A DNA stretch of 64,000 nucleotides, taken from Capnocytophaga gingivalis ATCC 33624. Its GTDB lineage: Bacteria; Bacteroidota; Bacteroidia; Flavobacteriales; Flavobacteriaceae. This document shows, piece after piece, positions 2,331-64,000 of the stretch (position 1 is the stretch's first letter; each line of letters begins with the position of its first letter). The notes under the pieces are model-generated. The model was not told the DNA's origin. It did not search any database and saw only the letters and a list, made by a program, of their open reading frames with translations. The stretch is taken from contig NZ_ACLQ01000022.1 in assembly GCF_000174755.1 (NCBI RefSeq), positions 62,001-126,000 of the forward strand, read 5' to 3'. The translations under genes and the position numbers were made by a program.

Positions 2331-2367
2331 TTTTATCTAAAAATTAGGTGATTAGAAAATATTTATC

Positions 2368-2375: not shown

Positions 2376-2396
2376 TCGCATCAAAATCATTATACC

Positions 2397-4097: not shown

Positions 4098-4111
4098 TCA
4101 GGTGAGAAAAT

Positions 4112-4540: not shown

Positions 4541-4991
4541 TGCTACAGCGATAGAAATAGCGTACAGGCTTTCCCCACTGTTGTGCAGGAATCAGTTTTG
4601 GGAACTGCTCCATAGTGCGTTGCACCTCTTTTCTTATATACAGAGAAGAAGTCACACAGCGGACAAGCACTACACTTCCGTCCTTTTCCACACTGAAAAG
4701 GACGGTCGCTCCTCCCTCCAATTCCTTATAAGGACTTTTAAGGATACTTTGCTTCAGATACTGAGAGAAGAAATGATAAAAACAGCTATCTCTTTCTCTT
4801 ACGCTCACGTCCTTACATTGTACAAACATAGGTTTTTGTTCCATTGAAGGGAAACAAGTCGTATTTATAGACTCCTCTTCCTCAATATCCATTGAAGGAA
4901 TAGTGTCTTTCTCTTGTGTGTATCCTATACAAGGAAATACAATCCATAAGGAGACGAATAAAAAAATATCTATTGAGAATCTGCTACCCAT
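4527..4991 (-). CDS. Secreted protein with TonB C-terminal-like domain
   Basis: A 154-residue protein. The N-terminus (residues 1-25) is a signal peptide ending near Y-T-Q-E. The C-terminal ~60 residues fit the TonB_C fold pattern: a beta strand, then K-D-G-S-V, then a segment with R-K-E-V-Q-R-T-M (helix), then F-P-K-L-I-P-A-Q-Q-W-G-K-P-V-R and a final strand. True TonB has an N-terminal membrane anchor and a Pro-rich spacer. Neither is present, so this is a free secreted TonB_C-like domain rather than an energy transducer. It is preceded by a small membrane ORF that overlaps its start by 8 bp. Confidence 0.65.
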   Translation of the reverse strand: MGSRFSIDIFLFVSLWIVFPCIGYTQEKDTIPSMDIEEEESINTTCFPSMEQKPMFVQCKDVSVRERDSCFYHFFSQYLKQSILKSPYKELEGGATVLFSVEKDGSVVLVRCVTSSLYIRKEVQRTMEQFPKLIPAQQWGKPVRYFYRCSIRFD

Positions 4992-5482: not shown

Positions 5483-5502
5483 TCCTACTCAAGTTTTTAT
5501 AC

Positions 5503-6045
5503 TTAAAATCTTTTCTCCATAAGCACCTCACCCCTATATATTTTTTGGTAACGAATGAGTTTTTCGCCCTGGTAATAACCTATATAGTAGGCGCGTTCTT
5601 CTTGGTGTGCCTCAGCTTCCTGCTGACTTATTTCATCATATAGGTAGGTAGAGCGATTCGTCTTTTGTTTGTGCACGTCAGAACAGCTAAGGAAATAACG
5701 CAGTACGATATCTCCCTTATACAAATAGAGTTTCTGTCCATTCATAGGGATTTCGGCAAAGACTCTTTCTTGTTCAACGGGGGTAATAGGTATTTTAGGC
5801 TCAAAAGAGGGATCAGCGTAAAAAGCATATTGAGGATCAATGTGTATTTCTGAGCTTTTTATTTTGAACACTTTACGCTCCCATTGGTTGCCTAATAAGA
5901 AATACTGAAAACCATCCTTTTCCCCACAATATTCATAGGTAAGTAGGGATTGTATCGCAAAGGCTTCTGTGGCTTTACGAACTTCTGTCGCTCTTTTGCA
6001 AGAAAACAACGCTAACAAAGAGGCTAATAAGGTCATTTTTTTCAT
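5503..6045 (-). CDS. Hypothetical lipoprotein
   Basis: A 180-residue protein with a lipoprotein signal peptide (M-K-K start, hydrophobic core, lipobox L-F-S-C with Cys at residue 16). The mature part is a mixed-charge globular domain with no family I recognise. It starts with an ATGA overlap on the LRR gene upstream, so the two are co-translated. Within this array it may be an exported immunity or accessory factor; that is inference from position only. Confidence 0.7.
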   Translation of the reverse strand: MKKMTLLASLLALFSCKRATEVRKATEAFAIQSLLTYEYCGEKDGFQYFLLGNQWERKVFKIKSSEIHIDPQYAFYADPSFEPKIPITPVEQERVFAEIPMNGQKLYLYKGDIVLRYFLSCSDVHKQKTNRSTYLYDEISQQEAEAHQEERAYYIGYYQGEKLIRYQKIYRGEVLMEKRF

Positions 6046-6974
6046 TCTTTTCTACTAAATATATAGGTGTCAGCTTCTTCAAAGTTAGGGTACTGCCCTC
6101 CAAAGACTTCTCTTACTACAATTTTACCGAGGTAACTTTCTAAAGGTAAGTAGATATCATTTGCATCTGTACAAACAAACTCTAAATAAGGCATTTTCAG
6201 CAAAGGAGAGGCATCTTTTACAGGGTTAAAACATATCTTTAAGTTCCTAAGGGTCTCTATACCTACCAAATCACTAAGGTCTTCTACCTTGTTTTGCTCT
6301 AAGTCCAATTCCTCTAAAGGTATATTTCGTAAGGGGGAAAGGTCTTTTACTTCATTGTGATACAAACGCAAGGTGTTGAGCTTCTTGAGGGCTTTCAATG
6401 GAGATAAATCGCTGATGTGGTTCCTATCTAACTGCAAATATTCAAGATTGGGCAACCACGCTAAAGGGGATATATCGGTGATTTGATTTCTATCCAACCA
6501 AAGTTCGGTAAGGTTTTGTAATTTAGCAATTCCTTTTAAAGAAAAGAGCTTATTACACGATAGTTTTAACTCTTTCAGTTTCGTAAGTTCACAAAAAGGA
6601 GTTATATCACTCACGCCACTGTCATAAATCTCTACTTTTTTAAGTTTTTTGTACTTAGCAAGAGGTGTATAATCTGTTGCCTTGACATTCAAATAGAGTT
6701 TTTGTAGCTTTTCCAAGGGAGGCAAGGCTTCCAAGTGAGTTATATTGTCTGATAGCAACTGTAATTCCTTTATATTGGGGAACATTTGCAAGTCGGCTAA
6801 GTCCTCCGAGTGCAAATCATCGTTATGAATGAGCATTTTGGTAATCAAAGACGCTCCTTCTTCTTTGACCAACACTCTCCTTCCTTCTTTTACAAGAAGG
6901 TCTTCGTGTTTCTTTTTCAGATATTGCTTTACTTTCTGCTCTATAAGCTTGCTCTTAAAGGTAATGTAACTCAT
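6042..6974 (-). CDS. Leucine-rich repeat protein (internalin/SDS22-type repeats)
   Basis: A 310-residue protein with no signal peptide, so probably cytoplasmic. From about residue 60 to 270 it is built of some ten 21-22-residue repeats with the pattern L-x-x-L-x-L-x-x-N-x-I-x-D-(I/L)-x-P-L, for example the segments containing W-L-D-R-N-Q-I-T-D-I-S-P-L. This is the internalin/SDS22 LRR class, a protein-binding scaffold. Neighbouring genes are small immunity-like families, and LRR proteins occur in such clusters. The binding partner is unknown. Confidence 0.8.
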   Translation of the reverse strand: MSYITFKSKLIEQKVKQYLKKKHEDLLVKEGRRVLVKEEGASLITKMLIHNDDLHSEDLADLQMFPNIKELQLLSDNITHLEALPPLEKLQKLYLNVKATDYTPLAKYKKLKKVEIYDSGVSDITPFCELTKLKELKLSCNKLFSLKGIAKLQNLTELWLDRNQITDISPLAWLPNLEYLQLDRNHISDLSPLKALKKLNTLRLYHNEVKDLSPLRNIPLEELDLEQNKVEDLSDLVGIETLRNLKICFNPVKDASPLLKMPYLEFVCTDANDIYLPLESYLGKIVVREVFGGQYPNFEEADTYIFSRKE

Positions 6975-6975
6975 T

Positions 6976-7116
6976 TTAATCAGTAACTAATATTTTTTCT
7001 AATTCCTTTTTCTTTAATAGATACGTTTTGAGGTCTATATTACGTTCTGTTTTTTGGTCAAAAAGATCTTCTAAAGATGATTGAGTATATGGTAAGTTCT
7101 GTTTAACATCTCTTAT
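6976..7116 (-). pseudogene. Start-less coding remnant between two lipoprotein/LRR genes
   Basis: A 46-codon open frame between stops, ending 1 bp before the LRR gene start. Its composition is protein-like: an amphipathic helix rich in L, K and E near the C-terminus. It has no ATG, GTG or TTG start; the first codon after the upstream TGA is ATA. It is likely the tail of a gene whose 5' part was lost when the 7113-7931 gene arrived or was rearranged. No family recognised. Confidence 0.35.
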
Positions 7117-7931
7117 TCATAATAGCTAATAATTCTTTTTTCTATTTTTGTTCCTATATATTCATTATTTTTATCCCTTTCCACTATTTTTCTAGATATC
7201 CAGTTATGTTTTTTATCATATACATAATCCGTAAATGAATACTCCCGTATTAATTCATCATCTAAATAATACATTTTTATTGATAATATATCTCCTTTAT
7301 CATCTATTTCAAATTTTCTTTTTAATTTAATCCCATGGCGGTAATTTTCAATAACTTCAATAACATTTCCCTTTTCATCATATTTAAATTCTGTAAAACC
7401 TCTTACGAAATCCTTAATATAAGGACTTAGTTGCTCCTTCCGGATTATATTTCCTTTTCCATCATATTTATTTACCAGTTTATAAGTTTCCTCTTTAATA
7501 TAGGTACTATCTTGTCCATTGACTAATATATATTCTAGGAACTCTTCATCTATTATCTCTCCTTTATTATTGTATTTTAAGGTTGTTTTATTTACCTTCC
7601 TACCTTCTCCATACATATCAATTTCTACAACATTATCTTTTAGATAATTATAAATAGTTCTACTTTTTGGTCTATTATATATAGAATCAGTCTCTTCCAT
7701 TAAGAATCCTTTATTATTAAAAATACCAACAGTTAATCTTTCTTGAGATATAAAAGGGGTCCCATCCTCTCTCTTTATAAAATCAGAGTTAGAGAGTCTA
7801 TATAGTGTTACAATGAGTTTTTTCACTTTTCCGTGAAGATTTTGATCTTTCCAATCCATTTCTCTATGCGATGAAGTTTTACAAGATACTAATAATAGTG
7901 ATACAAGTAGAAAAATAAATGATCTAAACAT
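7113..7931 (-). CDS. Lipoprotein with degenerate YD/RHS-like repeats
   Basis: A 272-residue protein from ATG at 7931. That start gives a clean lipoprotein signal (lipobox L-V-S-C), whereas the in-frame ATG at 7979 adds an unneeded extension. The mature region has repeated short units of the form Y-x-x-K-G-x-I/V (Y-N-N-K-G-E-I-I, Y-D-G-K-G-N-I-I, Y-D-E-K-G-N-V-I). These resemble single YD/RHS-like beta repeats that are common in Bacteroidota lipoproteins. It is strongly AT-rich compared with the genes on either side. Function unknown. Confidence 0.7.
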   Translation of the reverse strand: MFRSFIFLLVSLLLVSCKTSSHREMDWKDQNLHGKVKKLIVTLYRLSNSDFIKREDGTPFISQERLTVGIFNNKGFLMEETDSIYNRPKSRTIYNYLKDNVVEIDMYGEGRKVNKTTLKYNNKGEIIDEEFLEYILVNGQDSTYIKEETYKLVNKYDGKGNIIRKEQLSPYIKDFVRGFTEFKYDEKGNVIEVIENYRHGIKLKRKFEIDDKGDILSIKMYYLDDELIREYSFTDYVYDKKHNWISRKIVERDKNNEYIGTKIEKRIISYYE

Positions 7932-8046
7932 AATACATAATTTTAATTTTACAAGGGCAAAGATAAGTTTTTTTTCCAAAAATAAAGCATTTGAATAGAA
8001 ATATGTCTTGAATTTGATTATTTTTAAGTTTTTGTAAAGCGTTCAT

Positions 8047-8772
8047 TTAGTTGCTTTTTCTAAAAGTGATTCCATAAAACTTGTTATTCCAGAACAATTC
8101 TGTTTTCTTTTCAACCACTGATGCTGGAATACATTGTTCTATGGCGTTCAAATCAACCGTTTTGCCTTCAAAATAGGATTTAGAAAAGACGCTTTTCTTG
8201 TATTGGGTCTCCACAAAGTCGGCTGTCTCATCGGCGATAAGCAACTTGCTTCCTGGTTTGGCAACTCGGAGCATTTCGCTCATAGCAAGAGCTTTATCGT
8301 TGAAAAAATTGATACCTCCGTTGTGAAAAACAATATCAAACATATTATCAGCAAAAGGTAACTCTTCAGCGGGACATTGCACAAGGGTAAGGTTTGTTTT
8401 CTTTTGCCACTGTTTCTTACATCTTTTGAGCATTCCCATAGAAATATCAGCTCCTACAAGGTCTATTGTTTTCAGATCAATCCCTTGCGGTAGATAACGC
8501 AAGTCTGCCCCTATACCTATGGAAACATAAAGTACCGAAATAGCATTCTTCCATTCCAAGCGGCTCATCAATTCCGTACGCAGGCGGTCAATGCCATTTC
8601 CATACTTGAGTTTTCCTATCCATTTTTCTCCAAAATCATAAAAGAAAGACATCCAATCATACATTTTCATATATTTTTGATTATCTCCACTGACAAAATG
8701 GTCATTCATACAGCAAAAAATACCATCTTCTATTTTTATATCAGCTTTTAATATTTGGGATATATCCTTCAT
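8047..8772 (-). CDS. Class I SAM-dependent methyltransferase (UbiE/Methyltransf_11 type)
   Basis: A 241-residue protein. Motif I is V-S-I-G-I-G-A-D near residue 85, an acidic strand end V-G-A-D follows near residue 110, and the motif IV region F-D-I-V-F-H-N-G-G and post-motif L-R-V-A-K-P-G-S-K-L are in place. These fit a Methyltransf_11 small-molecule methyltransferase. The N-terminal ~75 residues lie before the Rossmann fold. It is the only clear metabolic enzyme inside the immunity-like array; its substrate cannot be read. Confidence 0.8.
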   Translation of the reverse strand: MKDISQILKADIKIEDGIFCCMNDHFVSGDNQKYMKMYDWMSFFYDFGEKWIGKLKYGNGIDRLRTELMSRLEWKNAISVLYVSIGIGADLRYLPQGIDLKTIDLVGADISMGMLKRCKKQWQKKTNLTLVQCPAEELPFADNMFDIVFHNGGINFFNDKALAMSEMLRVAKPGSKLLIADETADFVETQYKKSVFSKSYFEGKTVDLNAIEQCIPASVVEKKTELFWNNKFYGITFRKSN

Positions 8773-8790
8773 TGTATTTATATTTTTAAA

Positions 8791-9126
8791 TTATCTTTTC
8801 TTAATCAAAATATCTCCTTCACAAAGCCAAAGAGGTTCATTTTCTATCTTTAACTCCTCCCACCATTGTTTTTCTTCTGTTTCAGCATCATCTACTATAC
8901 GAAAACTAGCAAAATCTGTACGAGGCGGAGGCTATACTATAATCCTCTCTATAGCTACAGGTTCCAAATGATAAGTATCTGACAGTTTTTTGAGAGATAA
9001 CAGTTGTTCTAACTCCTTTTTATAGCTTACAAGTGCTTGTTTCTCCTCTTGCAAAAGAGAAACTTCTTTAAGCTGATGAATTGTTTTGTGAAGTTCGTCT
9101 TCTATAAGTTGTTTTGCTGTTTTCAT
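8791..9126 (-). pseudogene. Hypothetical gene interrupted by an in-frame TAG
   Basis: ATG at 9126 opens a frame that meets TAG at 8932-8934 after 64 codons. The same frame then continues for 46 more sense codons to TAA at 8791. The second part is clearly protein-like (P-P-P-R-T-D-F-A-S-F-R-I-V-D-D, then W-W-E-E-L, then W-L-C-E-G-D). Together they make one ~111-residue protein: an N-terminal coiled-coil-like helix plus a small C-terminal domain. It begins 2 bp after the LRR-NTF2 gene and ends 18 bp before the methyltransferase. Likely a nonsense mutation (from TGG or CAG), or less likely amber readthrough. Family not recognised. Confidence 0.6.
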
Positions 9127-9128
9127 TA

Positions 9129-10043
9129 TTACAATCCGTATTTAGTCCAGCCCCCATCGTGCCATTGGCAGTCATCTATCTTCCACTCGCCGTCTTTTCT
9201 GATGATAAGAAAGCGAAACTGATCATCACGATCATTTTGGGTATAGAGGTATATCTTATTTTTAGTTACTGTCTCGCTATCAATGATTTGATGCGCTCTA
9301 TAAGTACCGCCTTCATTTAGTGAAAAATGAATTCCTTCAGGACGATAGCCCGCCCTGCGCTTGTCGGTACAATACTTTTGGAAGAGGGCTTTGCATTTTT
9401 CTCTTACCAAAAGCTCACCCTCTTCTGTATCATCATTCTTGGCAGCAAAAGCCTCCCACTCAGTCATTGCCGCAAAGAAGTCCAAAAGCAGTTGCTTTAC
9501 TACGGGCAAATCATCGGTAAGGGTTGCCGCTGGTTTCTTCTTTCCTGCCGTGCGTTGCGCCTGCTCAAAGGCTTTTATCTGCTCGGCAGTGAAAGGTTTA
9601 TCAAGGTAAAAACTCACCTTGTTGTAATTTGCCACAGCCATAAGTCCTTCAAAAGTAACACGCGTTCTCTTTAGCGAAAGAGACTTCAGGCGTGGTACTT
9701 GCAAGACGATTTTTAGCGTCTCATCAGTTACGGGACAACCGTCTAGCGAGATATGGTCAATAGGTTTGTCGGCAAAGTACTTAAAGCCTTCGCCTATAAC
9801 TTGTTTGTTGTCCTCTAAGAAAAGGAGTTTTAGTTTGGGCAAGGTAGCCAAGTGTTTAATAGCTTCATCGGTAATGTCGGTATTGATAAAGCCCATATTG
9901 ACCAAAGACTTTACTTGTACGATCTGTGCCACCATCTCGTCGGTTAGGGTGACATCCTTGTAATGATTTCCCTTGCAAAAGCGCTCTTCGGTTACTTCCT
10001 TGAGCGCGGCTTCTAAGGTAATAGGGTATTTGTATGCAGCCAT
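9129..10043 (-). CDS. LRR protein fused to an NTF2-fold immunity-type domain
   Basis: A 304-residue protein. Residues ~30-150 are RNI/LRR-type repeats (segments such as L-K-S-L-S-L-K-R-T and I-D-H-I-S-L-D-G-C). After a Lys/Pro linker (G-K-K-K-P) near residue 165, residues ~180-304 resemble NTF2-fold immunity proteins. A long helix leads to beta strands and the end motif R-K-D-G-E-W-K-I-D-D-C-Q-W, typical of the NTF2 C-terminal hairpin. NTF2-fold immunity proteins neutralise polymorphic toxins. The LRR part may provide target recognition. The NTF2 call is moderate, made on pattern. Confidence 0.7.
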   Translation of the reverse strand: MAAYKYPITLEAALKEVTEERFCKGNHYKDVTLTDEMVAQIVQVKSLVNMGFINTDITDEAIKHLATLPKLKLLFLEDNKQVIGEGFKYFADKPIDHISLDGCPVTDETLKIVLQVPRLKSLSLKRTRVTFEGLMAVANYNKVSFYLDKPFTAEQIKAFEQAQRTAGKKKPAATLTDDLPVVKQLLLDFFAAMTEWEAFAAKNDDTEEGELLVREKCKALFQKYCTDKRRAGYRPEGIHFSLNEGGTYRAHQIIDSETVTKNKIYLYTQNDRDDQFRFLIIRKDGEWKIDDCQWHDGGWTKYGL

Positions 10044-39224: not shown

Positions 39225-40547
39225 TTATTTTTTTACTAAGAACCACACATTAGCATCACCAACCGAAATAAGGCGGTAATATTCACTCGAATGATTTTCA
39301 ACTGTATAAGGTGCACTCCTTACAAGAATTTCTGCAAGCCATATAGCTGGATCCTTAAAGAAGTATAAATAATTCTCTTTAGAATCCTGAGGGCCTTTAC
39401 TCAAGAATTTGACTTGAGTAGGAGCACCTGCTACTCCTACGAAATCTACCAGATAATAACCAGACCAACCGCTACCATCTTCTGTTGTTTCTACTATTTC
39501 TATTCCTGTAGCATTTTCTCCCTCATTCCCTGCCATAGGGGCAAGTTTTACTTTCTTCGACAGAGTTCCCCAACTAAAGATATTTTCTGCCCAACCCTTA
39601 GCTGCTTCATATTTTTCTATAAGATAAGGAGAAGCCTTAGAATCCTCAAAACTTATAACTGTAGAATTAGTTATAGTCAAAGGAGAAGGCACTAAGGCTG
39701 ATGAGAAATTTCCATCTGGAGATACTAAGGCTGTTTTATCTTCATTGAAATAAAGTTCAGAGAGGGTAACATTATTAATACTTACTGGCTCATAGAACTT
39801 AATCCCTTTTTCTGTAACGATAAAGGCTTGTTGCTGATACTTAGTATCATTTTCATAGAGAAAAGCTATCTGACGTGTAGTTGGGAAGAGTTCCAGTTTT
39901 ACTTGAGTTCCTCCTATACTAATAGGAGAAAGTCCCTTACCCAAGAGTTTGTCACGATTTTCTCGAATCTTATTTAGGAAAGTCTCTCTATCGGTAGTGA
40001 GTTTTGAAAGGGTCATGATATTTCCATTCCTTTTCCCTCTAAGGGTAAAAGTCTCCTTTTCCACCTTATCAATAAAGAAGTCTACTTCTCCTCCTCTAGC
40101 ATCATGATAATTGGTTGTAGAACTAAAGAAGTGGTGAATGATATCTCCTTTGGTATTGAAACTTAAAATAGGGAATTCAGATATGGTATAAGAATAATAA
40201 GTTGTTTCCTCTCTATTGGTAGGTACTACTTCTGAGGAAGCCGTTACTTTACCTTCAGAGAACTTCAAGATAAAATTATATCCTCCTAAGGAGCGGTGAT
40301 ACTTAGGAAAATTAATTGTTGAAGGGAAGAGGGTATTCAGATAAGGATATACCCAAAAACCTTCTTGATACTCTTCAGGATAGTAAGTAAGCAACCAATA
40401 ACCATCATGTCCTTCTAATAATTTTCTAGTATTTTGAAGGCTAGAGAGTATGCGCTCTTTGGGATTTTGGTCAAAGACAGGATCTTCCTTATATTCACAA
40501 GCTGTAAGGAAGAGCAAAGCAAGAGATGCTATTATATATTTTTTCAT
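39225..40547 (-). CDS. DUF4302 lipoprotein, import unit C
   Basis: A 440-residue lipoprotein (lipobox L-T-A-C). It has the DUF4302 landmarks: G-H-D-G-Y-W-L-L-T-Y-Y-P, G-G-Y-N-F-I-L-K-F-S, D-A-R-G-G-E-V-D-F, and N-G-N-I-M-T-L-S-K. Compared with the others it has a ~10-residue insertion near residue 62 (V-Y-P-Y-L-N-T-L-F-P). It is the last gene of unit C, 7 bp after the metallohydrolase. Confidence 0.85.
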   Translation of the reverse strand: MKKYIIASLALLFLTACEYKEDPVFDQNPKERILSSLQNTRKLLEGHDGYWLLTYYPEEYQEGFWVYPYLNTLFPSTINFPKYHRSLGGYNFILKFSEGKVTASSEVVPTNREETTYYSYTISEFPILSFNTKGDIIHHFFSSTTNYHDARGGEVDFFIDKVEKETFTLRGKRNGNIMTLSKLTTDRETFLNKIRENRDKLLGKGLSPISIGGTQVKLELFPTTRQIAFLYENDTKYQQQAFIVTEKGIKFYEPVSINNVTLSELYFNEDKTALVSPDGNFSSALVPSPLTITNSTVISFEDSKASPYLIEKYEAAKGWAENIFSWGTLSKKVKLAPMAGNEGENATGIEIVETTEDGSGWSGYYLVDFVGVAGAPTQVKFLSKGPQDSKENYLYFFKDPAIWLAEILVRSAPYTVENHSSEYYRLISVGDANVWFLVKK

Positions 40548-40554
40548 ATTACAA

Positions 40555-41691
40555 TCAATTATTATTAAGACGTGTAAAATCTTTTTTATCTACTTCATTT
40601 CCTTCAAAATCTTTACCTACCACATATTTGTATCGGCTACGGATTTCAGCACGAAGGGCATCGAGATCAATATTCCAAGTAGTAGAGAGATAATTCTTCA
40701 TAATTGCTATTTTTTGTTCTAACTTCTCTTTTCCTGTATATTGTTCTGTATCACGGATTTTTTCATCGGCGGTTTTTAGCACTTCTTGCCATATCTTTGC
40801 TGATTCATTATTCATTTCATCCCATTTTTCACTATCCACATAATTATAACGCTTATTTCTCCAAGTATTATAAGCTTCTGCATCGTAGCCATCAGGGAAA
40901 TTATTGTAATCGAGATTAGTAGAATTTTTTCCCCATTTGGACTGATCGGTAGTAGCACAATTACAACCATCCAAATCAGCATTAAAATATACAATATAGC
41001 GAGCCAAAAGCTCTACAAAGTCCTCATCCTTATTAAAACTTGAATAAGTTGTAATAAAGCCTGCCTTAAGGTAATCTGTTGTTCCATAGCTTCCCCAAGC
41101 AGATACCCAGTTTCCTCCTTTGTAGTCATTGGCTGAGACTTGTTCGTAAGCGGGAGAAAAGCGGATAGCTTGGTGCCATGTATGTGCATTTTCATGATAA
41201 AGGGTCACTAAGAAGTTGTCATTTAACCAATAGATACTATTGGGCTGTATATTATCAATCTCAGTAAGGTGGATCTTTACCCCTGCCGACGCTAATCCCA
41301 CATTCTTAGAGCCATCGGCATTGAAAGCAGGATCTCCCAATAACAACAAGATATTAAAGGAATGCTCCTTAAGAAATCTCTTAGAGGTAACCTTGATATA
41401 AGGTTCTATAAATAGATAATTAAAAATATTGACAAACTCTATAGATTTATCATATTTTGCGGGGGTATAAGTATAGCTACGAAAGGTTTCCTCATCCGTA
41501 AAACGATAGAGGATACGGATATTATAAGGCTTCTCTATGTTTTCATAGAGATAATTATCCAATTCGCTCTGATGATTTATATTTTTATCATGCAGTACAG
41601 AAGGTGTAAGTGCACTTTCATCAGGAATTTTATCATCTGCAGTACAGCTTATGAGGCCTACTGCCAAAAGAGAATATAGTATTTTTTTCAT
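40555..41691 (-). CDS. Import-associated zinc metallohydrolase lipoprotein, unit C
   Basis: A 378-residue lipoprotein (lipobox L-I-S-C). The zinc motif is H-E-N-A-H-T-W-H-Q and the later Glu lies in D-E-D-F-V-E-L-L-A-R-Y. It differs from units A and B in the region after this. The D-x-D-x-D-G acidic loop is replaced by a longer stretch with N-L-D-Y-N-N-F-P-D-G-Y-D, so the calcium-loop look is degraded. It lies 11 bp after susD. Confidence 0.85.
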   Translation of the reverse strand: MKKILYSLLAVGLISCTADDKIPDESALTPSVLHDKNINHQSELDNYLYENIEKPYNIRILYRFTDEETFRSYTYTPAKYDKSIEFVNIFNYLFIEPYIKVTSKRFLKEHSFNILLLLGDPAFNADGSKNVGLASAGVKIHLTEIDNIQPNSIYWLNDNFLVTLYHENAHTWHQAIRFSPAYEQVSANDYKGGNWVSAWGSYGTTDYLKAGFITTYSSFNKDEDFVELLARYIVYFNADLDGCNCATTDQSKWGKNSTNLDYNNFPDGYDAEAYNTWRNKRYNYVDSEKWDEMNNESAKIWQEVLKTADEKIRDTEQYTGKEKLEQKIAIMKNYLSTTWNIDLDALRAEIRSRYKYVVGKDFEGNEVDKKDFTRLNNN

Positions 41692-41702
41692 AAGTTCAAT
41701 AT

Positions 41703-43331
41703 TTATCTTGGATTGGGTTCCATTCCTGCTCCTAATACCTCGTCAGGAAGTTGGAAAGTGTTTCTATTATCTCCAGAGGTAAGGATATCTGGCACTTGGT
41801 AAGCACCACTATTTCCATATTTTTGGTAACGAGGTACTTCTATATTATAGCGCCTAACATCCTGCCAACGAAGACCTTCGCCCAAGGTAAGGACACGACG
41901 ACATTGTAATATATATTGTATCATAGCTTCCTGATCTGAGCCTTCTACAAGGGTGAAAGACGGATGCAAATGCTTTTTCTGAGTAACTCCCTCAGGAGTA
42001 TTAGTAGCATAATCTATAGAATCATAGAAGTCCTTTACATTTTGTATGGTGAAGCCTGTATTTATATGAGCGGTACGTACCCCATTTTGTTCCTTATAAT
42101 CGGTAATATAAGCCTTCGTCCATAAGTTAAGATCATCCATTGCTCCTTGTAGGTCAGAAAGCATTACCTTGGCTTCAGCTCTCACTAAGAGGGTTTCATC
42201 GGTGGTGAAAGGTACAATAATCGTACCATAGTTGGAGCTTGATCTCCTAAAGCGTGGAAACTTACCTACATTGACTATATCAATATATTTTCCCCCTGTA
42301 GTATTCACAAAAGGGGTAAACCAATAAAGCGGATATCCATTATTTGCATTAAAGGCATCTTGATCCCAAAGATTCTTCGTTCCCAAAGTTTGGTTATTAG
42401 CCACAAAAGTATTGTGGGTAAAGCGAGCATCGTACAATTCATCCAAGTAATAAGCCTCTAACATATTAGTAAAGGTAGGTTGTAGCATAAGGTTAGCCTC
42501 AATACTTTCCTTAGTATAATACATAGCAAAGTTATTCTTTGTAGAAGAACCTACATTGGCTCCATCTCTAAAAGCTTTCCAATTTCTAAGAAGTTCACTT
42601 ACATCTCCACTTAGCACTACATCGGCAGCATCTAAGGCTTTCTGCCATTTTTGATAATAGAGATAGAAACGTGCTGCAAAAGCATAAGCCGCTTTCTTAT
42701 TGAAGTGATACTTAGGTAATTGGTAATAACGATCCTCAATAAGAGGAAGTCCTGTTTCCAAGTCACTTTCTATCTGTTGATATACCTGAGCGACAGTGCC
42801 ACGGGGATATTTTACGATTAGGTTTTCTTCAATAGTCTTGGCATAAGGAATCCCTAAATCAGTATTACTGGTATGAGGGTTATACATTTTAGAAAAGGTA
42901 GTTACCAAGCAAAAATGAGCATAAGCCCTTATAAGTAGAGCCTCCCCTTTGGCAGGTTGTAATTCCTGTGTATTTCCTAACTTTTCGATCGCTTGTAAGG
43001 CTTCATTGGCCAAGGAGACAGATTCATAATGATATTGCCAAAAATTATGAAGTCCATCAGTATCCCAATATTCCTTAATAGGTTTCCAATAAGCGGCTTC
43101 TATGGCAAAGAAAGGAATCCCAGGCACATTTGCTCCATTATCAGCTATATTATCGGAAGCCAACTCGGTGATATAAGTATTGGTAGTTTTAGGATAGGCA
43201 CTAGTAAGTATATTTTTTATTTTTTCAGGAGTATCTATTTGTTCTACCCTATTATCAGAGAGTTCGTCTAATTTATTACAGGATGTCAAGCCTATGGCTA
43301 TCATCCCTATGAGTAAAAGTATCTTTTTCAT
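41703..43331 (-). CDS. SusD/RagB-type surface lipoprotein, unit C
   Basis: A 542-residue lipoprotein (lipobox L-T-S-C-N-K-L). It has the SusD landmarks K-K-A-A-Y-A-F-A-A-R-F-Y-L-Y-Y and R-R-V-L-T-L-G-E-G-L-R-W-Q-D-V-R-R-Y. It is less similar to units A and B than those are to each other. The gene itself is intact although its partner susC, 18 bp upstream, is frameshifted. Confidence 0.92.
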   Translation of the reverse strand: MKKILLLIGMIAIGLTSCNKLDELSDNRVEQIDTPEKIKNILTSAYPKTTNTYITELASDNIADNGANVPGIPFFAIEAAYWKPIKEYWDTDGLHNFWQYHYESVSLANEALQAIEKLGNTQELQPAKGEALLIRAYAHFCLVTTFSKMYNPHTSNTDLGIPYAKTIEENLIVKYPRGTVAQVYQQIESDLETGLPLIEDRYYQLPKYHFNKKAAYAFAARFYLYYQKWQKALDAADVVLSGDVSELLRNWKAFRDGANVGSSTKNNFAMYYTKESIEANLMLQPTFTNMLEAYYLDELYDARFTHNTFVANNQTLGTKNLWDQDAFNANNGYPLYWFTPFVNTTGGKYIDIVNVGKFPRFRRSSSNYGTIIVPFTTDETLLVRAEAKVMLSDLQGAMDDLNLWTKAYITDYKEQNGVRTAHINTGFTIQNVKDFYDSIDYATNTPEGVTQKKHLHPSFTLVEGSDQEAMIQYILQCRRVLTLGEGLRWQDVRRYNIEVPRYQKYGNSGAYQVPDILTSGDNRNTFQLPDEVLGAGMEPNPR

Positions 43332-43349: not shown

Positions 43350-46300
43350 TTATAAACCAAGACGCAAGGTGAAAATAATTCGCTTAGGGGCTACATAAAT
43401 TCCTGTAGCACGAAAGTCAGGATCATCTCCATTGAGTCGCTTATCGGCATAGAGCAAGGCAACATTAGTTGCTTGTAACTTGACACTGAGTTGGCGAATA
43501 CGTGTTTCCTGCAAGAAATTCTTATCAAAAGTGTATCCTACAGAGATTTCTTTCAAGCGTATATTATCTCCCTTGGCGATACGTACATCGGAATAATCGT
43601 ACGCACGATAAGCATGTTCTGTAAGATTTTTATAATCATAATTGTATTCTTGAGCAGAGGTATAGATAGCAGGGATATTTGTTTTCTTCTCATCTCCTGC
43701 AAATTGCCAACGATTCTTTAGTTCATTAGGTAAGGTAGTAACGTCCGAATAAAGACCACTATAGATACTGCTTACATCCCTTAGGCGTACCACATTACCC
43801 CAAGAATAGGTAAATACTATCCCAAAAGAAAGTCCTTTATAGTTGAAGGTATTGGAAAAACTACCTTTGTCTGTAGGAATAAGAGTTCCTGAATATTTTA
43901 AGAAATCTACATTTCTTTCTTTCATATCTACCCCAAAATGAGTAGGATTTCCATCAGGCCCTATGAAGGTAGGTAACCCTTCACTATCCAAACCATTGAA
44001 GGGTACTGAGAAGAGTGAACCCTGAGGATACCCTTCGCGAGCAAAACCTCCTGAACCACTGTACCCCACCATATCTCCTACAGTTGGAGCTGTATTCAGT
44101 TTGGTAATTTTATTGATTGCTCGAGAATAGACTAAGGAAGTTTTCCAAGAGAAATCTTCGGTTTTTATATTGATAGTTTCTAATCCTGCTTCTAAACCTT
44201 GTGTCTGCATCTCGGCTATATTCCCATATTTGGAAATCTGTCCTCCTACTCCTTGAGTAATTACAGATCCTATCAAGTCATAACTCCTACGCTTGAACCA
44301 TTCTAAAGATACATTCAAGCGATAATTCAGAAGACCAAACTGAGTTCCTACATTGATTTCTTGTGTCTTTTCATAGGTAAGATCACGATTTGCTAAATTA
44401 GAACGATAGATTCCTTTTTCTCTAACAGAAGAATTTCTCCAAGGGAGATCGTAATAAAGCTGAGTGTAAGAATTAGTAGCATAAGGCGAAACAGCGGTCA
44501 GCCCCAGAGAAGTATATATATTGAGATAGGAAAATACTGGAGTAAGATGCGTAAAGAATTTTTCCTGTGAGACATCCCAAGTAAGTCCTACATTCCAAGT
44601 AGGCATCCATCGGATCAGACGCGAGGGTGCAAACTGATTAGAGGCATCGTAACGTAAAGTACCATTGAGTGTATAACGGTTGCCATATGTATAGGAAGCA
44701 TTCCCAAAGAAGGCTTGATTATTATTGACTGTATTAGAAATATTATAATAGCCCTCCGAACGTTCTTGTAAATATTTTAAGAACAAATAAGAATACGCTT
44801 CTAAGTGACCAGAATTAAAAAGTACCCCATAATTATGATTCTATCGTTAGAGTTTTTAGCATTATCCATATCAAACCCTCCATAAAGATTCAATAGATGA
44901 AGGCCATCTGAGAAAGAGTCGTTATAGTTAAGAGTAGCACGGAGGTTATTCCCATTAAAAGTAGTAACCTGCTTAGTACGTTTTCCTCCTTGAGGCATCA
45001 CTATCTCAGGGATTGCAAAAGGATTGTTAGGATCTTTGTAAAGATAATCATTATTTTCTCTTATACTTTCATTGATAGCACGATAACTCTGAGCTATATT
45101 AGAGTTTTCTGTTATATCTGTATTATAGACCCCTGATTCATAGCGGATAGCTCCCATGAGAGTAGCCTCTACCTTAGGAGAAATCTTATAACTGAGTTGC
45201 GCTTGTAAGCGCAAGGTTGCCAAATCAGTCGTCATAAAGTTATTTTCTCTTTCTCTATGAATATTGAAGGGGGCGTAGTAGTACGCATAATCATCCTTAG
45301 GATCCATAGTACGTGGTGTTCCTAAGGCATATTCATACATATTCTTACCATTACTTCTTTTTTCCTGATAAGAAATATCTGTAATCACATTGAGACTAAG
45401 TTTGGAAGAAAAATTATAAGTAGCATTAAGATTACCTGCATATTGGGTAAGTTCTTCTCCTTTTTGCCAACCTGGATCACTAAGCACACTCAAGGAGGTG
45501 TAATAAGCAGATTTTTCTCCTCCTGAAGAAAAAGACAGCGTATGGTTCTGCATTACACTGCTCTGGAAGAGCTCTTTGAACCAGTTGGTATTCCTATGTT
45601 CGGCTACTCTCATATAAGCCAAGCGACCTTCTTCGGTATTGGCCACTCTTGGATTTCCATTGGCATCCAAAATATTATAGAGTTCATACATCCTCCCGAC
45701 TGCTCCCTTGAGGGTATAGGTTTTATAGCTTTCGGTAGGCATCATCCCTTTTCTCATCATCTCTTGTACAAAAGACATCTGATCCTGAGAATTCATGATA
45801 TTATACTGTTTGTAGGAAGGGATAAGTCGGTAAGTGGATTCGTTAGAATAAGTAAAACTACTGGAGCCTGCGGTACCTTTTTTGGTAACAACTTCCACGA
45901 CTCCTGCAATAGCACGTGGTCCATAATAAGCAGTAGCAGAAGCATCATTGATCACTCTAAAGCTTTCAATACTCTCAGCTGTAAGTCCCGGAATAGCAGA
46001 AGCTATCAGTGACTTAGCATCGTCGGAGACCAAATCCTCTGGTTTGAGGTCTATATCTCCTTGAAGAATCACTCCATTGAGCACCCAAAGAGGCTTTACT
46101 GTTTGAACAATAGAAGTCTGTCCACGGGTATTGGTATTCATAGGAGTCCCCGCTTTTTTCTTAGTTCCCTCTTCTCCCTGAGCTAAAAGGGTAACATCCA
46201 CTGTAGCGGAAGAAGGTGTAACTTCTTGTGATTGCATACCCTGTAGAGAGAAAACCAAGGTCTGTCCCTTGGTAAGAGTAATCGTATACAATCCTTCGAA

Positions 46301-46477
46301 ATCGGTGTGTGTGCTCTGCGAAGTGCCTTTGATACTTACTTGCACCCCTGCCAGTGGCTTGGACTTGGTATCCTTAACCACCCCAGAGACAGCCAGCTCT
46401 TCTTGCGCAAAGGAAGTATAACATACCCCACAGAAAAGCAATAGCATAAACAATGTTTTCAGTCTCGATGTATTCAT
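43350..46477 (-). pseudogene. SusC/RagA-type transporter of unit C, frameshifted
   Basis: ATG at 46477 gives a signal peptide ending in F-A-Q-E, the regulatory-like domain, the plug (A-S-A-T-A-Y-Y-G-P-R-A) and the first half of the barrel. The frame then runs into a stop near 44801. The other half continues in another frame to 43350 and ends in T-L-R-L-G-L. Alignment to units A and B puts the shift at about 44838-44842. Adding one A to the A-run there restores N-D-R-N-H-N-Y-G-V-L-F-N-S-G in register. The total of 3128 bp is one short of 1043 codons. It could be a real loss of function, phase-like slippage or a sequencing error. Confidence 0.85.
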
Positions 46478-59676: not shown

Positions 59677-60354
59677 ATGATAGATATAGGCCTAAACTTA
59701 ACCAACCGACAATTTGCCCATGACCAAGAGGAACTCCTCCTCCGTGCTGAGCAGGCGGGAGTCACTCAAATGATACTCACTGGCACCTCCCTTCGTAGTA
59801 GCAAAGAATCCTTTGCTCTTGCTAAGGGTTACCCTACCCTGCTCTATAGTACTGCGGGGATACATCCACACGATGCTAAGACAATGAACGAACAGACCAT
59901 ACCTCAGCTCAGCGCCCTACTGAAGGAAAAGCAGGTGGTAGCGGTAGGAGAATGTGGGTTAGACTTTGATCGCGATTTCTCGCCTCGTCCCGTACAAGAG
60001 CAGTGTTTTCGTGCCCAGCTTGCCCTTGCCCAAGAGGTGCAAAAGCCACTATTCCTACACGAGCGTGCTGCCTTTGACCGATTTGTAGGGATTCTCAAGG
60101 ATTATACCCTCCTGCCTAAGGGTGTAGTACATTGTTTTACAGGCAGTTTGAGCGAGGTAAAGACCTACCTTGATGCTGGCTACTATATTGGTTTTACAGG
60201 CGCCATTAGCGATAGCCGCCGATTTGCTTTCTTGGAAGAAGTAGTACGTTATGTACCCTTAGAACGTATGCTTATAGAGACTGATGCGCCCTTTATGCCC
60301 ACAAAAGATTCAATAAGTATGTATCTTTCAGATAATCACGAAACTAAGGAATAA
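59677..60354 (+). CDS. tatD: TatD family metal-dependent hydrolase, C-terminally truncated
   Basis: A 225-residue protein. It aligns with E. coli TatD (260 aa) from its first residue (M-I-D-I-G-L-N-L-T) through the metal-binding [14 protein letters not shown]-x-R, H-C-F-T-G and E-T-D-A-P motifs. After E-T-D-A-P-F-M the family continues for about 50 more residues (an R-x-E-P-A-H-L-P helix and an N-x-x-x-L-F tail). Here it has only ~16 unrelated residues (ending D-N-H-E-T-K-E). The catalytic core is present but a C-terminal helix is missing. The break coincides with the start of the accessory island. Confidence 0.85.
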
Positions 60355-60520
60355 TAAAGGATAAAAGGGATTACGAGTTGGAAACGAGCGAGTTTCTTTC
60401 CCTTTCTTTCTTTTGCAATGCCTCAATGAACACTTGTTTTGATACAGCAAAGGTACTAATTATCCGATGAAAAACGAGTGAAGTCAAAGAAAATCTTTGT
60501 TCTGTTAAATAATCTAAATC

Positions 60521-60554
60521 TTTTGTTTATAAGCTACTATTGTTGTATCTTTGC
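60521..60554 (+). promoter_or_regulatory. Promoter towards the defence operon (TTTTG / TATCTTTG)
   Basis: TTTTG (60521-60525) and TATCTTTG (60547-60554) are spaced 21 bp apart. It lies 350 bp upstream of the methyltransferase, so it may have served the remnant gene below and now drives the operon through a long leader. Confidence 0.55.
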
Positions 60555-60641
60555 CCTATAGTTATTGAGCATAGAGTATGCTGTTTTGTCTTCTTGCTCT
60601 GTGGATTTGCCTTATGATGACTTCGCTCCATACTGTTGGGG

Positions 60642-60832
60642 GTGAAAGTTATTGCTATAGCAAATAGTATAGAGCGAAGGACGAAAGCCACTTACGCTGA
60701 TGGCAAGGTGTACAGCATCGTAACAGACCTGCCCAGCACGCCGACAACGGCTTACAACGCAGAGGGTGAAGAGATAGGTCGCATAGGCTCGATATGAACG
60801 GGAATATATTCGATGAGAAATACAACCGATAG
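60642..60832 (+). pseudogene. Decayed gene remnant
   Basis: From 60642 the frame reads a protein-like stretch (A-T-Y-A-D-G-K-V-Y-S-I-V-T-D-L-P-S-T-P-T then A-Y-N-A-E-G-E-E-I-G-R-I-G-S-I) and stops at TGA 60795. An overlapping frame (ATG at 60794) continues with N-G-N-I-F-D-E-K-Y-N-R to TAG at 60830. Together they suggest one short gene with a frameshift. Its GC-richer codons differ from its surroundings, which suggests transfer. The rest of 60355-60903 shows only the promoter above. Confidence 0.4.
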
Positions 60833-60903
60833 GCTCCTTACAGCAATCAGATATGGATTCCATTCCTATTTTAAGAGCAGTACTATATTAAATCAAGAAC
60901 ACA

Positions 60904-61980
60904 ATGTTATACGGAATAGATATTTTCTCAGGTGCAGGAGGTTTGAGCCTTGGTGCAGAAATGGCTGGAATACAAATCTGCTATGGAATTGAGATAAATC
61001 CAAGTGCAGCTAAATCATTTACTCGAAATCATAAAGGAGCAAAAGTTCTTCAAGGAGACATCAAAGACATTGACCCATCAAAACTAAAAGAAGGTATTGA
61101 TCCAGTATTTATCATTATGGGTGGACCTCCTTGCCAAGGATTTTCACTTTCGAATACTCGTACGCGAAATATGCAGAATGAAAATAACTTCTTGTTCTTA
61201 GAATTCGTCCGTTTTGTTCAGGAGCTGAAACCAACTTGGTTCGTTCTTGAAAATGTGTGGGGATTAACCAATATGGAAGAGGGTAAAACCAAGAACATGA
61301 TAGAGGATTGCTTCAGAGCTTTAGGTTATGAGGTAAATTCTCAGGTGCTGTGGGCATCTGATTATGGTGTCCCCCAAAATAGAAACCGTTTCTTCATGGT
61401 GGGTAATCGTCATGGAATAGAATTTGAATTTCCAGAACCTTTTGAGAAGAAAATTACGGTCGAAGAAGCTATTGGAGATTTGCCTGATTTGGATAATGGC
61501 GAGATGCTTGAAAAGGGCAAATATAAAGTCCCTTGTTCAGAAGCAAGTGAGTATGCTCAGCTTATGCGAGAGCATTCTCATTACCCAACTCAGAATTTTG
61601 TTTCACGTAATAATAACCTTGTAATTCAACGCTATACGCACATTAAACAAGGGCAAAACTGGCGTGCAATCCCCGATGAACTGATGCAGAACTATGCAGA
61701 TAAAGGACGCACTCATAGTGGCATTTACAAACGTCTTATTGCCGACCAACCTTCTGTGGTAATCTCTAACTACAGAAAGAGTATGCTCATTCACCCTTAT
61801 CAAGACAGAGGTTTGTCTGTACGCGAAGCCGCACGCTTGCAGAGTTTCCCAGATGACTTCTATTTTGAAGGACCTATCTCACACATCCAACAACAGATTG
61901 GTAATGCCGTACCACCACTACTAGCAAAAGCTGTATTTGACCAAATTATAAAAATGTCGCGTCACGATGGCCAAAGATAG
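60904..61980 (+). CDS. C5-cytosine DNA methyltransferase
   Basis: A 358-residue protein with all main m5C motifs: I (D-I-F-S-G-A-G-G-L-S-L-G, residue ~6), IV (G-G-P-P-C-Q-G-F-S with catalytic Cys near residue 81), VI (E-N-V-W-G-L near 120), VIII (Q-N-R-N-R-F-F-M-V-G near 158) and X (Q-Q-I-G-N-A-V-P-P-L near 340). The target-recognition region (about 190-300) determines the site, not readable here. It is the first gene of the operon and overlaps the next by 14 bp. It probably marks host DNA as self. Confidence 0.95.
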   Translation: MLYGIDIFSGAGGLSLGAEMAGIQICYGIEINPSAAKSFTRNHKGAKVLQGDIKDIDPSKLKEGIDPVFIIMGGPPCQGFSLSNTRTRNMQNENNFLFLEFVRFVQELKPTWFVLENVWGLTNMEEGKTKNMIEDCFRALGYEVNSQVLWASDYGVPQNRNRFFMVGNRHGIEFEFPEPFEKKITVEEAIGDLPDLDNGEMLEKGKYKVPCSEASEYAQLMREHSHYPTQNFVSRNNNLVIQRYTHIKQGQNWRAIPDELMQNYADKGRTHSGIYKRLIADQPSVVISNYRKSMLIHPYQDRGLSVREAARLQSFPDDFYFEGPISHIQQQIGNAVPPLLAKAVFDQIIKMSRHDGQR

Positions 61981-63463
61981 AGAAAACATACCTGTAGCAC
62001 CTACCTTAATGGGTTCCCTTAGATCCATGGGGTATTCCTTTGAATCCGCGGTAGCCGATGTTATTGATAATAGCATCAGCGCACATGCTACACTCGTAAA
62101 AGTACTCTTCCCAACCACTCCACTTGAACCGACAGCTGTAGGTATTTTAGATGATGGTGAAGGGATGAGTGATGAAAAACTCTTTGAGGCGATGCGTTAT
62201 GGGAGCATGGCGTCAGAAGCAGAACGTGATGAAGACGACCTTGGGCGTTTCGGCATGGGCATGAAGGCTGCTTCCCTTTCCCAATGTAGAAATTTGACGG
62301 TAGTTAGTTATAGCCAAGGAAAACGAAGCGCCTATACTTGGGATTATGATTACATCCAGAAAAAACAAAAATGGATAATCCAAGAGCTTACGTCACAAGA
62401 AATAGACAATCTCCCATACGTTAGCCAGATTACCGATCAGGCTAAAGGCACACTTGTAATCTGGAGAGACTTTGATGTTTTGTCAAAATCAAGTGATGGT
62501 CAGGTTTACGAAACCCTTGATAATTTAAAGAACTCGCTCGATAAAGCTCTTGCACTTATTTTCCATAGATTCCTTTCTGCCACAGGTAGTGCTAAACTCC
62601 AAATTCAGATAAACAACTTGAGTGTAAAGCCGCTTGATCCATTTCTCGAACGTCATCCAAGAACTTCAAGCAAAAGGGAACGAACTATAGCAATCAACGA
62701 TAGTGAAGGAATGGAGCGCTTGATTCATGTAAAACCATTTGTTCTTCCTTTTGCCACCGATCTTTCTGATAACGACAAGAAGCTGATTGGAGGCATAGAA
62801 AACCTCCGAGCAAAGCAAGGGTTCTACGTTTACCGAAATAATCGTCTCATTATTTGGGGTACTTGGTTTGGCATGAAACAACGTGCTGAGTTGACAAAGA
62901 ATGCTCGAATACGTGTTGATATTCCTAATATGCTGGATGACATATGGGGTATTGACATTAAGAAGCAAAATGCTTCTATCCCTAAGCGTATTCTTAATCA
63001 GTTGCGCAAAACGGTATTTGATACACTCGAAGCATCCGTTAATCAGCAAACTTACCGAGGAAGAACTGCAAAGATTGACGATGAAACAGATTATATCTGG
63101 GATAGAAAAGAAGGTCGAAACCAGATGTTCTATTACCAGATAAACAGAGAAAGCAAACTATTTCAGTTTGTCAAGGATAAAATGTCTGAAGAGGATTACA
63201 ACTATCTTGAAATGCTGGTAACAGAGATTGAGAACAACATCCCAACTCAGCAAATGTACATTGACAGATCAAATGAAGCAATTACTGTAGAAGAAACAGA
63301 TAGTCGCTTTGATGATGTCTTCCAAATTGCTGTAACAATGGTAAGTACATTAAAGATTACAACGAAGAGTACTACAGAAAGCATCATTAACGACCTGATG
63401 AAATCTGAGCCATTCTGCAAGTACCCAAAGTTAATGGATAAACTAACTGATAATTTCAAATAA
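61967..63463 (+). CDS. GHKL (MutL-like) ATPase of a defence operon
   Basis: A 498-residue protein. The Bergerat ATP-binding motifs are clear: N box (E-S-A-V-A-D-V-I-D-N-S-I-S-A near residue 29), G1 (D-D-G-E-G-M near 63) and G2 (G-R-F-G-M-G-M-K-A-A near 92). These match the HATPase_c_3/MutL-type. The middle (~200-340) looks like an S5/transducer-type domain and the C-terminal 150 residues are helical. There is no histidine kinase domain, so it is not a sensor kinase. It starts inside the methyltransferase gene and ends 4 bp before the Z1 gene, indicating tight coupling. The partner set fits a restriction-like module. Confidence 0.88.
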   Translation: MAKDRENIPVAPTLMGSLRSMGYSFESAVADVIDNSISAHATLVKVLFPTTPLEPTAVGILDDGEGMSDEKLFEAMRYGSMASEAERDEDDLGRFGMGMKAASLSQCRNLTVVSYSQGKRSAYTWDYDYIQKKQKWIIQELTSQEIDNLPYVSQITDQAKGTLVIWRDFDVLSKSSDGQVYETLDNLKNSLDKALALIFHRFLSATGSAKLQIQINNLSVKPLDPFLERHPRTSSKRERTIAINDSEGMERLIHVKPFVLPFATDLSDNDKKLIGGIENLRAKQGFYVYRNNRLIIWGTWFGMKQRAELTKNARIRVDIPNMLDDIWGIDIKKQNASIPKRILNQLRKTVFDTLEASVNQQTYRGRTAKIDDETDYIWDRKEGRNQMFYYQINRESKLFQFVKDKMSEEDYNYLEMLVTEIENNIPTQQMYIDRSNEAITVEETDSRFDDVFQIAVTMVSTLKITTKSTTESIINDLMKSEPFCKYPKLMDKLTDNFK

Positions 63464-63467
63464 ACTA

Positions 63468-64000
63468 ATGACTGATGATTTATACCTTTCGTTGAGGCAA
63501 ATAACATTTATCTTCATCGATGCTGATAAAGCAGTAGGCAATGAGGTGAAATTTGAAAACATTAACACATATATTGATAGAGCGATAACGTCGCTCCGGA
63601 TTACTTGTGATGAAGAGACACGAAAACGTCTTTTCACGGATGTGGAGTATCAGTTCAAAATCACTCATGCCAAGGGAAATGTAATCTTTGATGATTATGA
63701 CAGTAGACAAGAGTGGTATTCCAATGAGGATATTAAGAAGCCTTATTTCTGGAATAAATACAAAGCATTACTTCTTAAGAATTCATCCTTCAGCAGAAAG
63801 AGTATAAATCTTCTAGATGAGGATACTCTGCCTAACATAATGAACTGTCTTGGCAATCCCAATGACCAGTTTGAAGGTAAAAGATTCCGTAGAGGACTTA
63901 TCATTGGTGACGTACAATCTGGGAAAACAGCAACATACTCTGGTTTGATTTGTAAGGCTGCCGATGCTGGCTACAAAGTAGTCATACTGCTTGCAGGAAT
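63468..64000 (+). CDS. Z1-domain ATPase, N-terminal part (runs off window)
   Basis: ATG at 63468, 4 bp after the GHKL gene; the frame stays open for ~177 codons to the right edge, so no stop is seen. After a mixed N-terminal ~145 residues comes the diagnostic Walker A region of Z1 proteins: R-G-L-I-I-G-D-V-Q-S-G-K-T-A-T-Y then G-L-I-C-K-A-A-D-A-G-Y-K-V-V-I-L-L-A-G. The Z1 domain is a P-loop (helicase-like) ATPase found in restriction-like loci. The rest, and the usual downstream PD-(D/E)XK-type and AIPR-type partners, would be beyond the window. Confidence 0.85.
   Translation, partial: MTDDLYLSLRQITFIFIDADKAVGNEVKFENINTYIDRAITSLRITCDEETRKRLFTDVEYQFKITHAKGNVIFDDYDSRQEWYSNEDIKKPYFWNKYKALLLKNSSFSRKSINLLDEDTLPNIMNCLGNPNDQFEGKRFRRGLIIGDVQSGKTATYSGLICKAADAGYKVVILLAG

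What the first reader, a model, noticed from the sequence alone, without database searches (positions are those of the whole stretch)
60904..64000. Dcm - GHKL/MutL - Z1 operon: probable restriction-like phage-defence system
Three tightly coupled genes: an m5C methyltransferase with all motifs, a MutL-type GHKL ATPase with N, G1 and G2 boxes, and a protein with the Z1 Walker A region. Seen directly: the motifs, the 14-bp overlap, the 4-bp gap, and the location next to a truncated housekeeping gene. Known: Z1 ATPases recur with methyltransferases, MutL-like ATPases, PD-(D/E)XK proteins and AIPR proteins in predicted restriction systems. Inferred: the methyltransferase marks self, and the two ATPases sense and process unmarked DNA for a nuclease encoded just past the window. 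No nuclease is visible inside the window.
Basis: partly seen in the sequence, partly recalled or inferred. Interest (0 to 1): 0.78.

Follow-up and report, generated by a model that had tools for sequence, protein, structure and literature searches.

The report
Frame-broken MORC-type phage-defence operon
The three genes are the front half of a known kind of bacterial anti-phage operon (a DNA-marking enzyme, two motor-like proteins, a nuclease and an accessory protein) that, in this strain, carries two frameshifts not seen in the complete relatives examined, so it is probably switched off.

Summary
In detail: a C5 methyltransferase, a MORC-type GHKL ATPase and an SF2/Z1 protein with the stated overlap and gap. 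The window cuts the operon. This is the MORC + Z1 + restriction-fold nuclease + Dcm + AIPR kind described by Iyer 2008 and as 'Type II' by Miller 2022; it is related to mzaBCDE but far below NCBIfam's cut-offs.
Unusual here: two genes are frame-broken. The Z1 gene is 756 + 194 aa where relatives have one frame, mostly 900-980 codons; the AIPR gene is 404 + 305 aa where relatives have one frame, mostly about 700. In 89 of 89 relatives with all the hits needed, each is one frame. All 187 near-invariant residues are kept, and 31 neighbouring genes shared with a same-genus genome are full length, so the breaks look real and recent. The operon stands in place of about 5 kb found in that genome and truncates the genes on both sides. 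Most likely: a horizontally acquired restriction-type defence operon, recently inactivated or crippled. Rivals: working split subunits; assembly error.

The parts
60904..61980 (+). C5-cytosine DNA methyltransferase (Dcm type), 358 aa
   Evidence: Pfam DNA_methylase E 5.8e-73; 71% identical to the first gene of the operon in MT836482.1
61967..63463 (+). GHKL+S5 ATPase of the prokaryotic MORC type (MzaB-like), 498 aa
   Evidence: HATPase_c_3 E 2.2e-44; MzaB hits; MORC motif GhXhhpXXRhl of Iyer 2008 fits residues 285-295, with G285, Y287, Y289, R290, R293 invariant in 9 sequences; best PDB matches are MORC2
63468..64000 (+). First part of the SF2 helicase-like + Z1 protein (MzaC-like, 756 aa, frame ends early at window-equivalent 65738). 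Beyond the window end, on the same contig, follow in window-equivalent coordinates: detached C-terminal domain of the Z1 protein 65747-66331 (194 aa); DUF4420 PD-(D/E)XK nuclease 66318-67238 (306 aa); AIPR N-terminal piece 67259-68473 (404 aa); AIPR C-terminal piece 68457-69374 (305 aa, another frame)
   Evidence: Z1 E 9.3e-79, ResIII, DUF4420 E 9.6e-54, AIPR_N E 1.1e-29, AIPR profile 1-137 and 142-305 of 308; MzaC, D, E hits; C-domain 45% identical to part of the single 942-aa protein of MT836482.1 and inside the Z1 frame in 28 of 28 loci with a hit; both genes single-framed in 89 of 89 relatives
59677..60354 (+). tatD, truncated at its 3' end by the left edge of the replacement
   Evidence: DNA alignment with G395 stops at L002:3299 = window 60298; open frames of 264-268 codons in 5 same-genus genomes

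Best explanation
A horizontally acquired restriction-type anti-phage operon of the MORC/Z1/DUF4420/AIPR kind that has recently been inactivated, or at least crippled, by two small frameshifts. In an intact relative the likely mechanism (inferred) is this. The methyltransferase marks the cell's own sites. The Z1 helicase-like motor and the MORC ATPase act on unmarked DNA, by ATP-driven movement as suggested for CglI and looping as Iyer proposed. The PD-(D/E)XK protein cuts, perhaps with AIPR, whose N-terminal part models as a restriction-endonuclease fold. In this strain the motor has lost its C-terminal domain from the same chain and AIPR is cut in two, so full restriction is probably lost while methylation may persist. 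Shown: gene content, frames, motifs, replacement site. Inferred: defence function, mechanism, horizontal arrival, loss of function.
For: Gene set on the contig. B-C-D-E order in loci from many bacterial groups; 59 of 89 such loci have a same-strand methyltransferase-like hit within 2.5 kb, 29 before B and 30 after E. Motifs of the Iyer type fit. PADLOC and NCBIfam hits to MzaB-E. Z1 and AIPR genes each single-framed in 89 of 89 relatives, the X domain inside the Z1 frame in 28 of 28 with a hit. Against sequencing error: of 35 same-genus genes with a hit of at least 55% identity, 31 are matched over at least 85% of their length (38,253 bp) and none of the 4 partial ones has a second-frame piece. 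Replacement: tatD and a 217-aa gene, whole in G395, are both truncated here at the edges. Of 19 other genus genomes held, none has a close copy of the Z1 protein; one has a 39% partial match.
Against: 0 of 187 near-invariant positions changed, as expected for a still-used system too. The detached Z1 C-domain has its own ATG 8 nt after the stop, so split products might work. No expression or phage data. Draft assembly of 37 contigs, not checked against reads. Operon GC 0.397 does not differ from the left flank (0.395; right flank 0.43), so composition does not mark it as foreign. 18 of the 89 relatives have their methyltransferase-like hit elsewhere and 12 have none, some because contigs end. 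In one P. aeruginosa survey 56% of nine strains with Mza were phage-susceptible (PMC10855318, passage seen), so presence alone does not show protection.
Confidence: 0.6

Rival explanations
1. Functional split: the system still works with the Z1 protein as motor (756 aa) plus a separate C-domain (194 aa), and AIPR as two chains that reassemble.
For: 0 of 187 near-invariant columns altered. The X frame starts with ATG 8 nt after the Z1 stop. The Z1 break lies about 100 residues past the end of the Z1 Pfam domain (residue 660). The AIPR break falls in a loop between helix 383-394 and the strand at 410-412 of a relative's model. In CglI the isolated DEAD-Z1 part still forms a complex with its nuclease (PMC4267653, passages seen).
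Against: No split in 89 of 89 relatives. By Pfam the AIPR break is inside the AIPR domain (profile 137/142 of 308). The second AIPR piece has a TTG start inside the first piece's end, and the near-invariant W-x-Y-E-R motif directly follows the break.
Confidence: 0.25
2. Assembly or sequencing error: both genes are intact in the living strain and the system is an ordinary complete member.
For: Draft genome in 37 contigs; otherwise unblemished coding sequence.
Against: No split gene seen among 35 shared neighbouring genes, 31 of them full length over 38,253 bp, against 2 breaks in about 5 kb here. The longest single-base run at either break is 4. The control would miss a frameshift in the last 15% of a gene.
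Confidence: 0.12
3. Orphan methyltransferase with unrelated neighbours, no defence system.
For: The methyltransferase frame is open with a full-length Pfam match, and its position relative to B-E varies between loci.
Against: Tight spacing; the same A-B-C-D-E order in MT836482.1 and, by hit positions, in L029, L031, L032 and L033.
Confidence: 0.03

Closest known systems
MORC + SF2 helicase + restriction-fold nuclease + Dcm operons, third type of Iyer, Abhiman & Aravind 2008 (PMC2292703; abstract and two of three parts of section 3 read)
   Same: MORC S5 motif, the DThhQXuRhFG helicase motif (V for T here), the E-D-ExK nuclease motif, methyltransferase; AIPR is named there as common in RM operons
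   Different: This copy has two frame-broken genes
'Type II' putative defence system of Miller et al. 2022 (PMC9523054; section 11 read; author name recalled)
   Same: Z1 protein, PD-(D/E)XK protein, cytosine methyltransferase and AIPR, with associated MORC protein; low similarity to mzaBCDE; sigma factor in only a few
   Different: Z1 protein 925 aa there, 756 + 194 here; no regulator gene found in this operon
mzaABCDE (attributed to Gao et al. 2020; that paper is not held; seen only through PMC11811056 and PMC9523054 passages)
   Same: MzaB, C, D and E homologues in the same order
   Different: All scores far below NCBIfam equivalog cut-offs; no sigma factor found; a methyltransferase instead
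CglI / NgoAVII ATP-dependent restriction systems (PMC4267653; passages seen)
   Same: C5 methyltransferase plus SF2 + Z1 + C-domain motor plus separate nuclease; C. glutamicum was the one of 14 control genomes with a Z1 hit
   Different: Nuclease there is PLD-type with a B3 domain; three genes, no MORC, DUF4420 or AIPR

Membership tests
Iyer 2008 MORC/SF2 restriction operon (third type) | GHKL ATPase with MORC motif GhXhhpXXRhl in the S5 domain | tested here: met
   Residues 285-295 fit; G285, Y287, Y289, R290, R293 invariant in 9 sequences; motif text; best PDB match MORC2 E 1.5e-10, over the ATPase part only
Iyer 2008 MORC/SF2 restriction operon (third type) | SF2 helicase with DThhQXuRhFG motif | tested here: met
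   Residues 591-601 fit except V for T at 592; D591, L593, Q595, R598, F600, G601 near-invariant in 88 other loci and kept
Iyer 2008 MORC/SF2 restriction operon (third type) | Extra gene of the restriction-endonuclease fold with E-D-ExK | tested here: met
   DUF4420 with E138, D168, E177-x-K179 near-invariant and kept
Miller 2022 Type II | Z1 protein + PD-(D/E)XK protein + cytosine methyltransferase + AIPR | tested here: met
   Pfam hits for all four, two of the genes frame-broken
mzaABCDE (NCBIfam equivalogs) | Scores over the equivalog cut-offs for MzaB, C, D, E | tested here: not met
   288.8/850, 440.3/1500, 74.2/420, 181.9 and 70.4/1050 bits; the two split genes score lower for that reason too
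mzaABCDE | MzaA sigma factor in the operon | tested here: not met
   No sigma-factor domain in the 7 operon ORFs or the 3 neighbours scanned with Pfam; genes further away were not scanned. That MzaA is a sigma factor is from PMC9523054 and PMC10924106 passages
CglI-type restriction system | PLD-type nuclease with B3 domain beside the Z1 motor | tested here: not met
   No PLD or B3 match at E <= 0.001 in the 10 proteins scanned
Functional defence system (any) | Protects against phage | not testable with these tools
   Needs plating assays
Intact operon | Z1 and AIPR genes each in one open frame as in relatives | tested here: not met
   Both split here; each single in 89 of 89 relatives

The most novel reading that the evidence does not exclude
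The operon is a working natural dissection of the MORC/Z1 defence machine: the motor and its C-domain, and the nuclease-like and helical parts of AIPR, act as separate polypeptides, with function kept or changed (for example methylation with weakened restriction).
Probability: 0.2. Interest if true: 0.45.

Novelty: new member of a known kind. Interest (0 to 1): 0.27.

Why it matters
In the listings of my paper searches and the passages read I saw no worked-out mechanism for MORC/Z1/AIPR operons. This locus comes with a set of intact relatives to test, and it is a natural case of such an operon broken in its motor and AIPR genes while the methyltransferase, MORC and nuclease frames stay open, which bears on how these systems are lost. 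It also warns that annotation by gene presence could call this strain defended when it may not be.

Tried and rejected
Novel gene X: the 194-aa ORF had no Pfam, PADLOC or NCBIfam match, no match in 394 other same-phylum genomes and none in viral contigs, both by single-sequence search. It first looked like a new sixth gene. MT836482.1 showed it is the detached C-terminal domain of the Z1 protein; the single-sequence searches were simply too weak.

Programmed frameshift: I saw no standard slippery heptamer at the Z1 break by eye, and no relative needs one. Phase variation: no long simple repeat at either break.

Structure of the C-domain (relative's sequence L029, 216 aa, mean pLDDT 80.2): no PDB match at E <= 0.001 and best second-look Z 2.5; inconclusive. 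AIPR (relative's sequence L029, mean pLDDT 86.5, pTM 0.52): Foldseek gave nothing at E <= 0.001. The second look gave restriction-endonuclease-fold chains over residues 1-245 (AF1548 Z 9.6, rmsd 3.1, 117 aligned; FokI Z 8.6; MspJI Z 8.1; HamA, BspD6I, SduA and others lower), with RNA polymerase and acetyl-CoA carboxylase chains among the rows at Z 5-6, and weak ParB-N-like matches over about 217-377 (5k5d Z 5.5; PadC 4.8; SspE 4.8 and 4.7). The latter are a lead only. A likeness of the invariant NGGQTT to the DGQQR motif of DUF262 proteins is recalled, not tested; DUF262 is not among the 25 of 35 Pfam families shown for the 50 members.

Promoter- and terminator-like sites were no more than in shuffles (24 against 26.7; 2 against 6.0). 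A dead MutT-like stretch after the operon had no match better than E 3.1 in the 120 related loci, searched with a 27-aa piece. I first took mza to come from Rousset 2022; PMC11811056 lists it as Gao_mza. Other passages seen: PMC5379612 (a Z1/DUF4420/Dcm island in a Corynebacterium), PMC12629846 (Mza in Pseudomonas islands), PMC10924106.

Full report
Observation. The window is G000:C16:62001-126000 and the contig runs on to 152766, so the missing part could be read. Window-equivalent coordinate = L002 position + 56999.

Beyond the window. After the Z1 gene (ends 65738) come a 194-aa ORF (65747-66331), a DUF4420 PD-(D/E)XK gene (66318-67238) and two ORFs that together make one AIPR protein, 404 and 305 aa, in different frames (67259-68473, 68457-69374). 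PADLOC and NCBIfam match MzaB, MzaC, MzaD and MzaE, the last once for each half.

Two broken genes. A contig from human faeces in the phage collection, MT836482.1, carries the whole operon at 45-73% protein identity by piece. There the Z1 protein is one 942-aa chain that includes the 194-aa ORF as its C-terminal domain, and AIPR is one 707-aa chain. Of these, 89 have hits to B, C and both AIPR halves with C and E on the operon strand; the other 31 were dropped, lacking one or more of these hits, some because the contig ends. Some of the 89 are near-copies of one another, so they are not 89 independent cases. In 89 of 89 both AIPR halves lie in one frame (589-966 codons stop to stop) and the Z1 frame is 899-1343 codons. 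In 28 of 28 with a recognisable hit to X, X lies inside the Z1 frame; in the other 61 the C-domain was not matched by this one sequence and only the frame's length speaks. Comparing the junctions with relatives by eye suggests a net loss of one base in the Z1 gene and of two in the AIPR gene; the exact events are inferred.

Real or artefact. I compared 62.6 kb of the syntenic contig of a same-genus genome (G395) with 90.8 kb of this contig. Of 47 G395 ORFs of 150 aa or more, 35 have a hit of at least 55% identity; 31 of these are matched over at least 85% of their length (38,253 bp). Of the 4 partial ones, two are the edges of the replacement (tatD and a 217-aa gene), one touches the window's first base and one is a partly matching gene; none has a second-frame piece. 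In the other direction 36 of 39 matched ORFs are full length. Two frameshifts within about 5 kb are therefore unlikely to be background error, though reads were not available and a frameshift near a gene's end would escape this test.

Age of the breaks. Against 88 loci that also have D, this operon keeps every one of 187 near-invariant positions (55 MORC, 79 Z1 with C-domain, 13 nuclease, 40 AIPR); six close relatives show 0-2 deviations per protein. The breaks are thus recent, or the pieces still function.

Arrival. In G395 tatD is followed by an EamA-type transporter gene, an NAD-binding-like gene, small genes and the 217-aa gene (names by eye). Here about 9.6 kb with the operon stands in place of about 5.1 kb, with both flanking genes truncated. 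ARAGORN finds no tRNA in the 20 kb of L002. Of the other 19 genus genomes none has a Z1 protein close to this one; one (G399) has a 39% partial match, itself a Z1 protein. The nearest MORC genes (59-63% identity) are in a Phocaeicola massiliensis genome and in Porphyromonadaceae, Clostridia, Bacteroidales and Paludibacteraceae MAGs. This patchiness fits horizontal spread. GC does not set the operon apart from its left flank. I did not identify the organism.

What kind. The MORC motif, the helicase motif (one difference) and the E-D-ExK motif that Iyer et al. 2008 give for this operon type are present. The composition matches the description of 'Type II' of Miller et al. 2022. It is mza-like, but every component scores far below NCBIfam's mza equivalog cut-offs and no sigma factor was found in the operon.

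Mechanism. For an intact system I favour methylation-gated restriction with ATP-driven DNA handling. CglI shows a Z1 motor coupled to a nuclease, with ATPase activity on unmethylated cognate DNA when in complex (passages), and Iyer proposed DNA looping by the MORC ATPase. The nuclease candidates are MzaD (conserved E-D-ExK) and possibly AIPR, whose N-terminal part resembles restriction-endonuclease folds in a model of a relative (Z up to 9.6; Foldseek alone gave nothing significant). In this strain the split motor and split AIPR make loss or reduction of restriction most likely; the methyltransferase, MORC and nuclease frames are open.

Verdict. A real, correctly spotted system of a known kind; a new member, probably a dying copy. 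Interest is modest, raised a little by the double break in otherwise untouched sequence.

Noticed in passing
window-equivalent 69379-69918 (L002:12380-12919): Directly after the operon lies a degenerate MutT/NUDIX-like start with in-frame stops (by eye), followed by the truncated end of the 217-aa gene that is whole in G395.
   Followed up: partly
window 60355-60903: Remnant-looking sequence between the truncated tatD and the operon; origin unknown.
   Followed up: no
window 5499-9130: A 3.6-kb stretch is 94% identical to G395, while window 1-4581 is 81%; conserved genes or recent exchange.
   Followed up: no
window 43414-46477: This stretch matches two places on the same G395 contig (C95:30176-33255 at 66% and 39429-42157 at 68%), suggesting duplicated gene blocks there.
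   Followed up: no
L029:13734-14381: The C-terminal domain of MzaC-like proteins has a fairly confident model (mean pLDDT 80) but no Pfam match at E <= 1 and no significant PDB match was found.
   Followed up: partly
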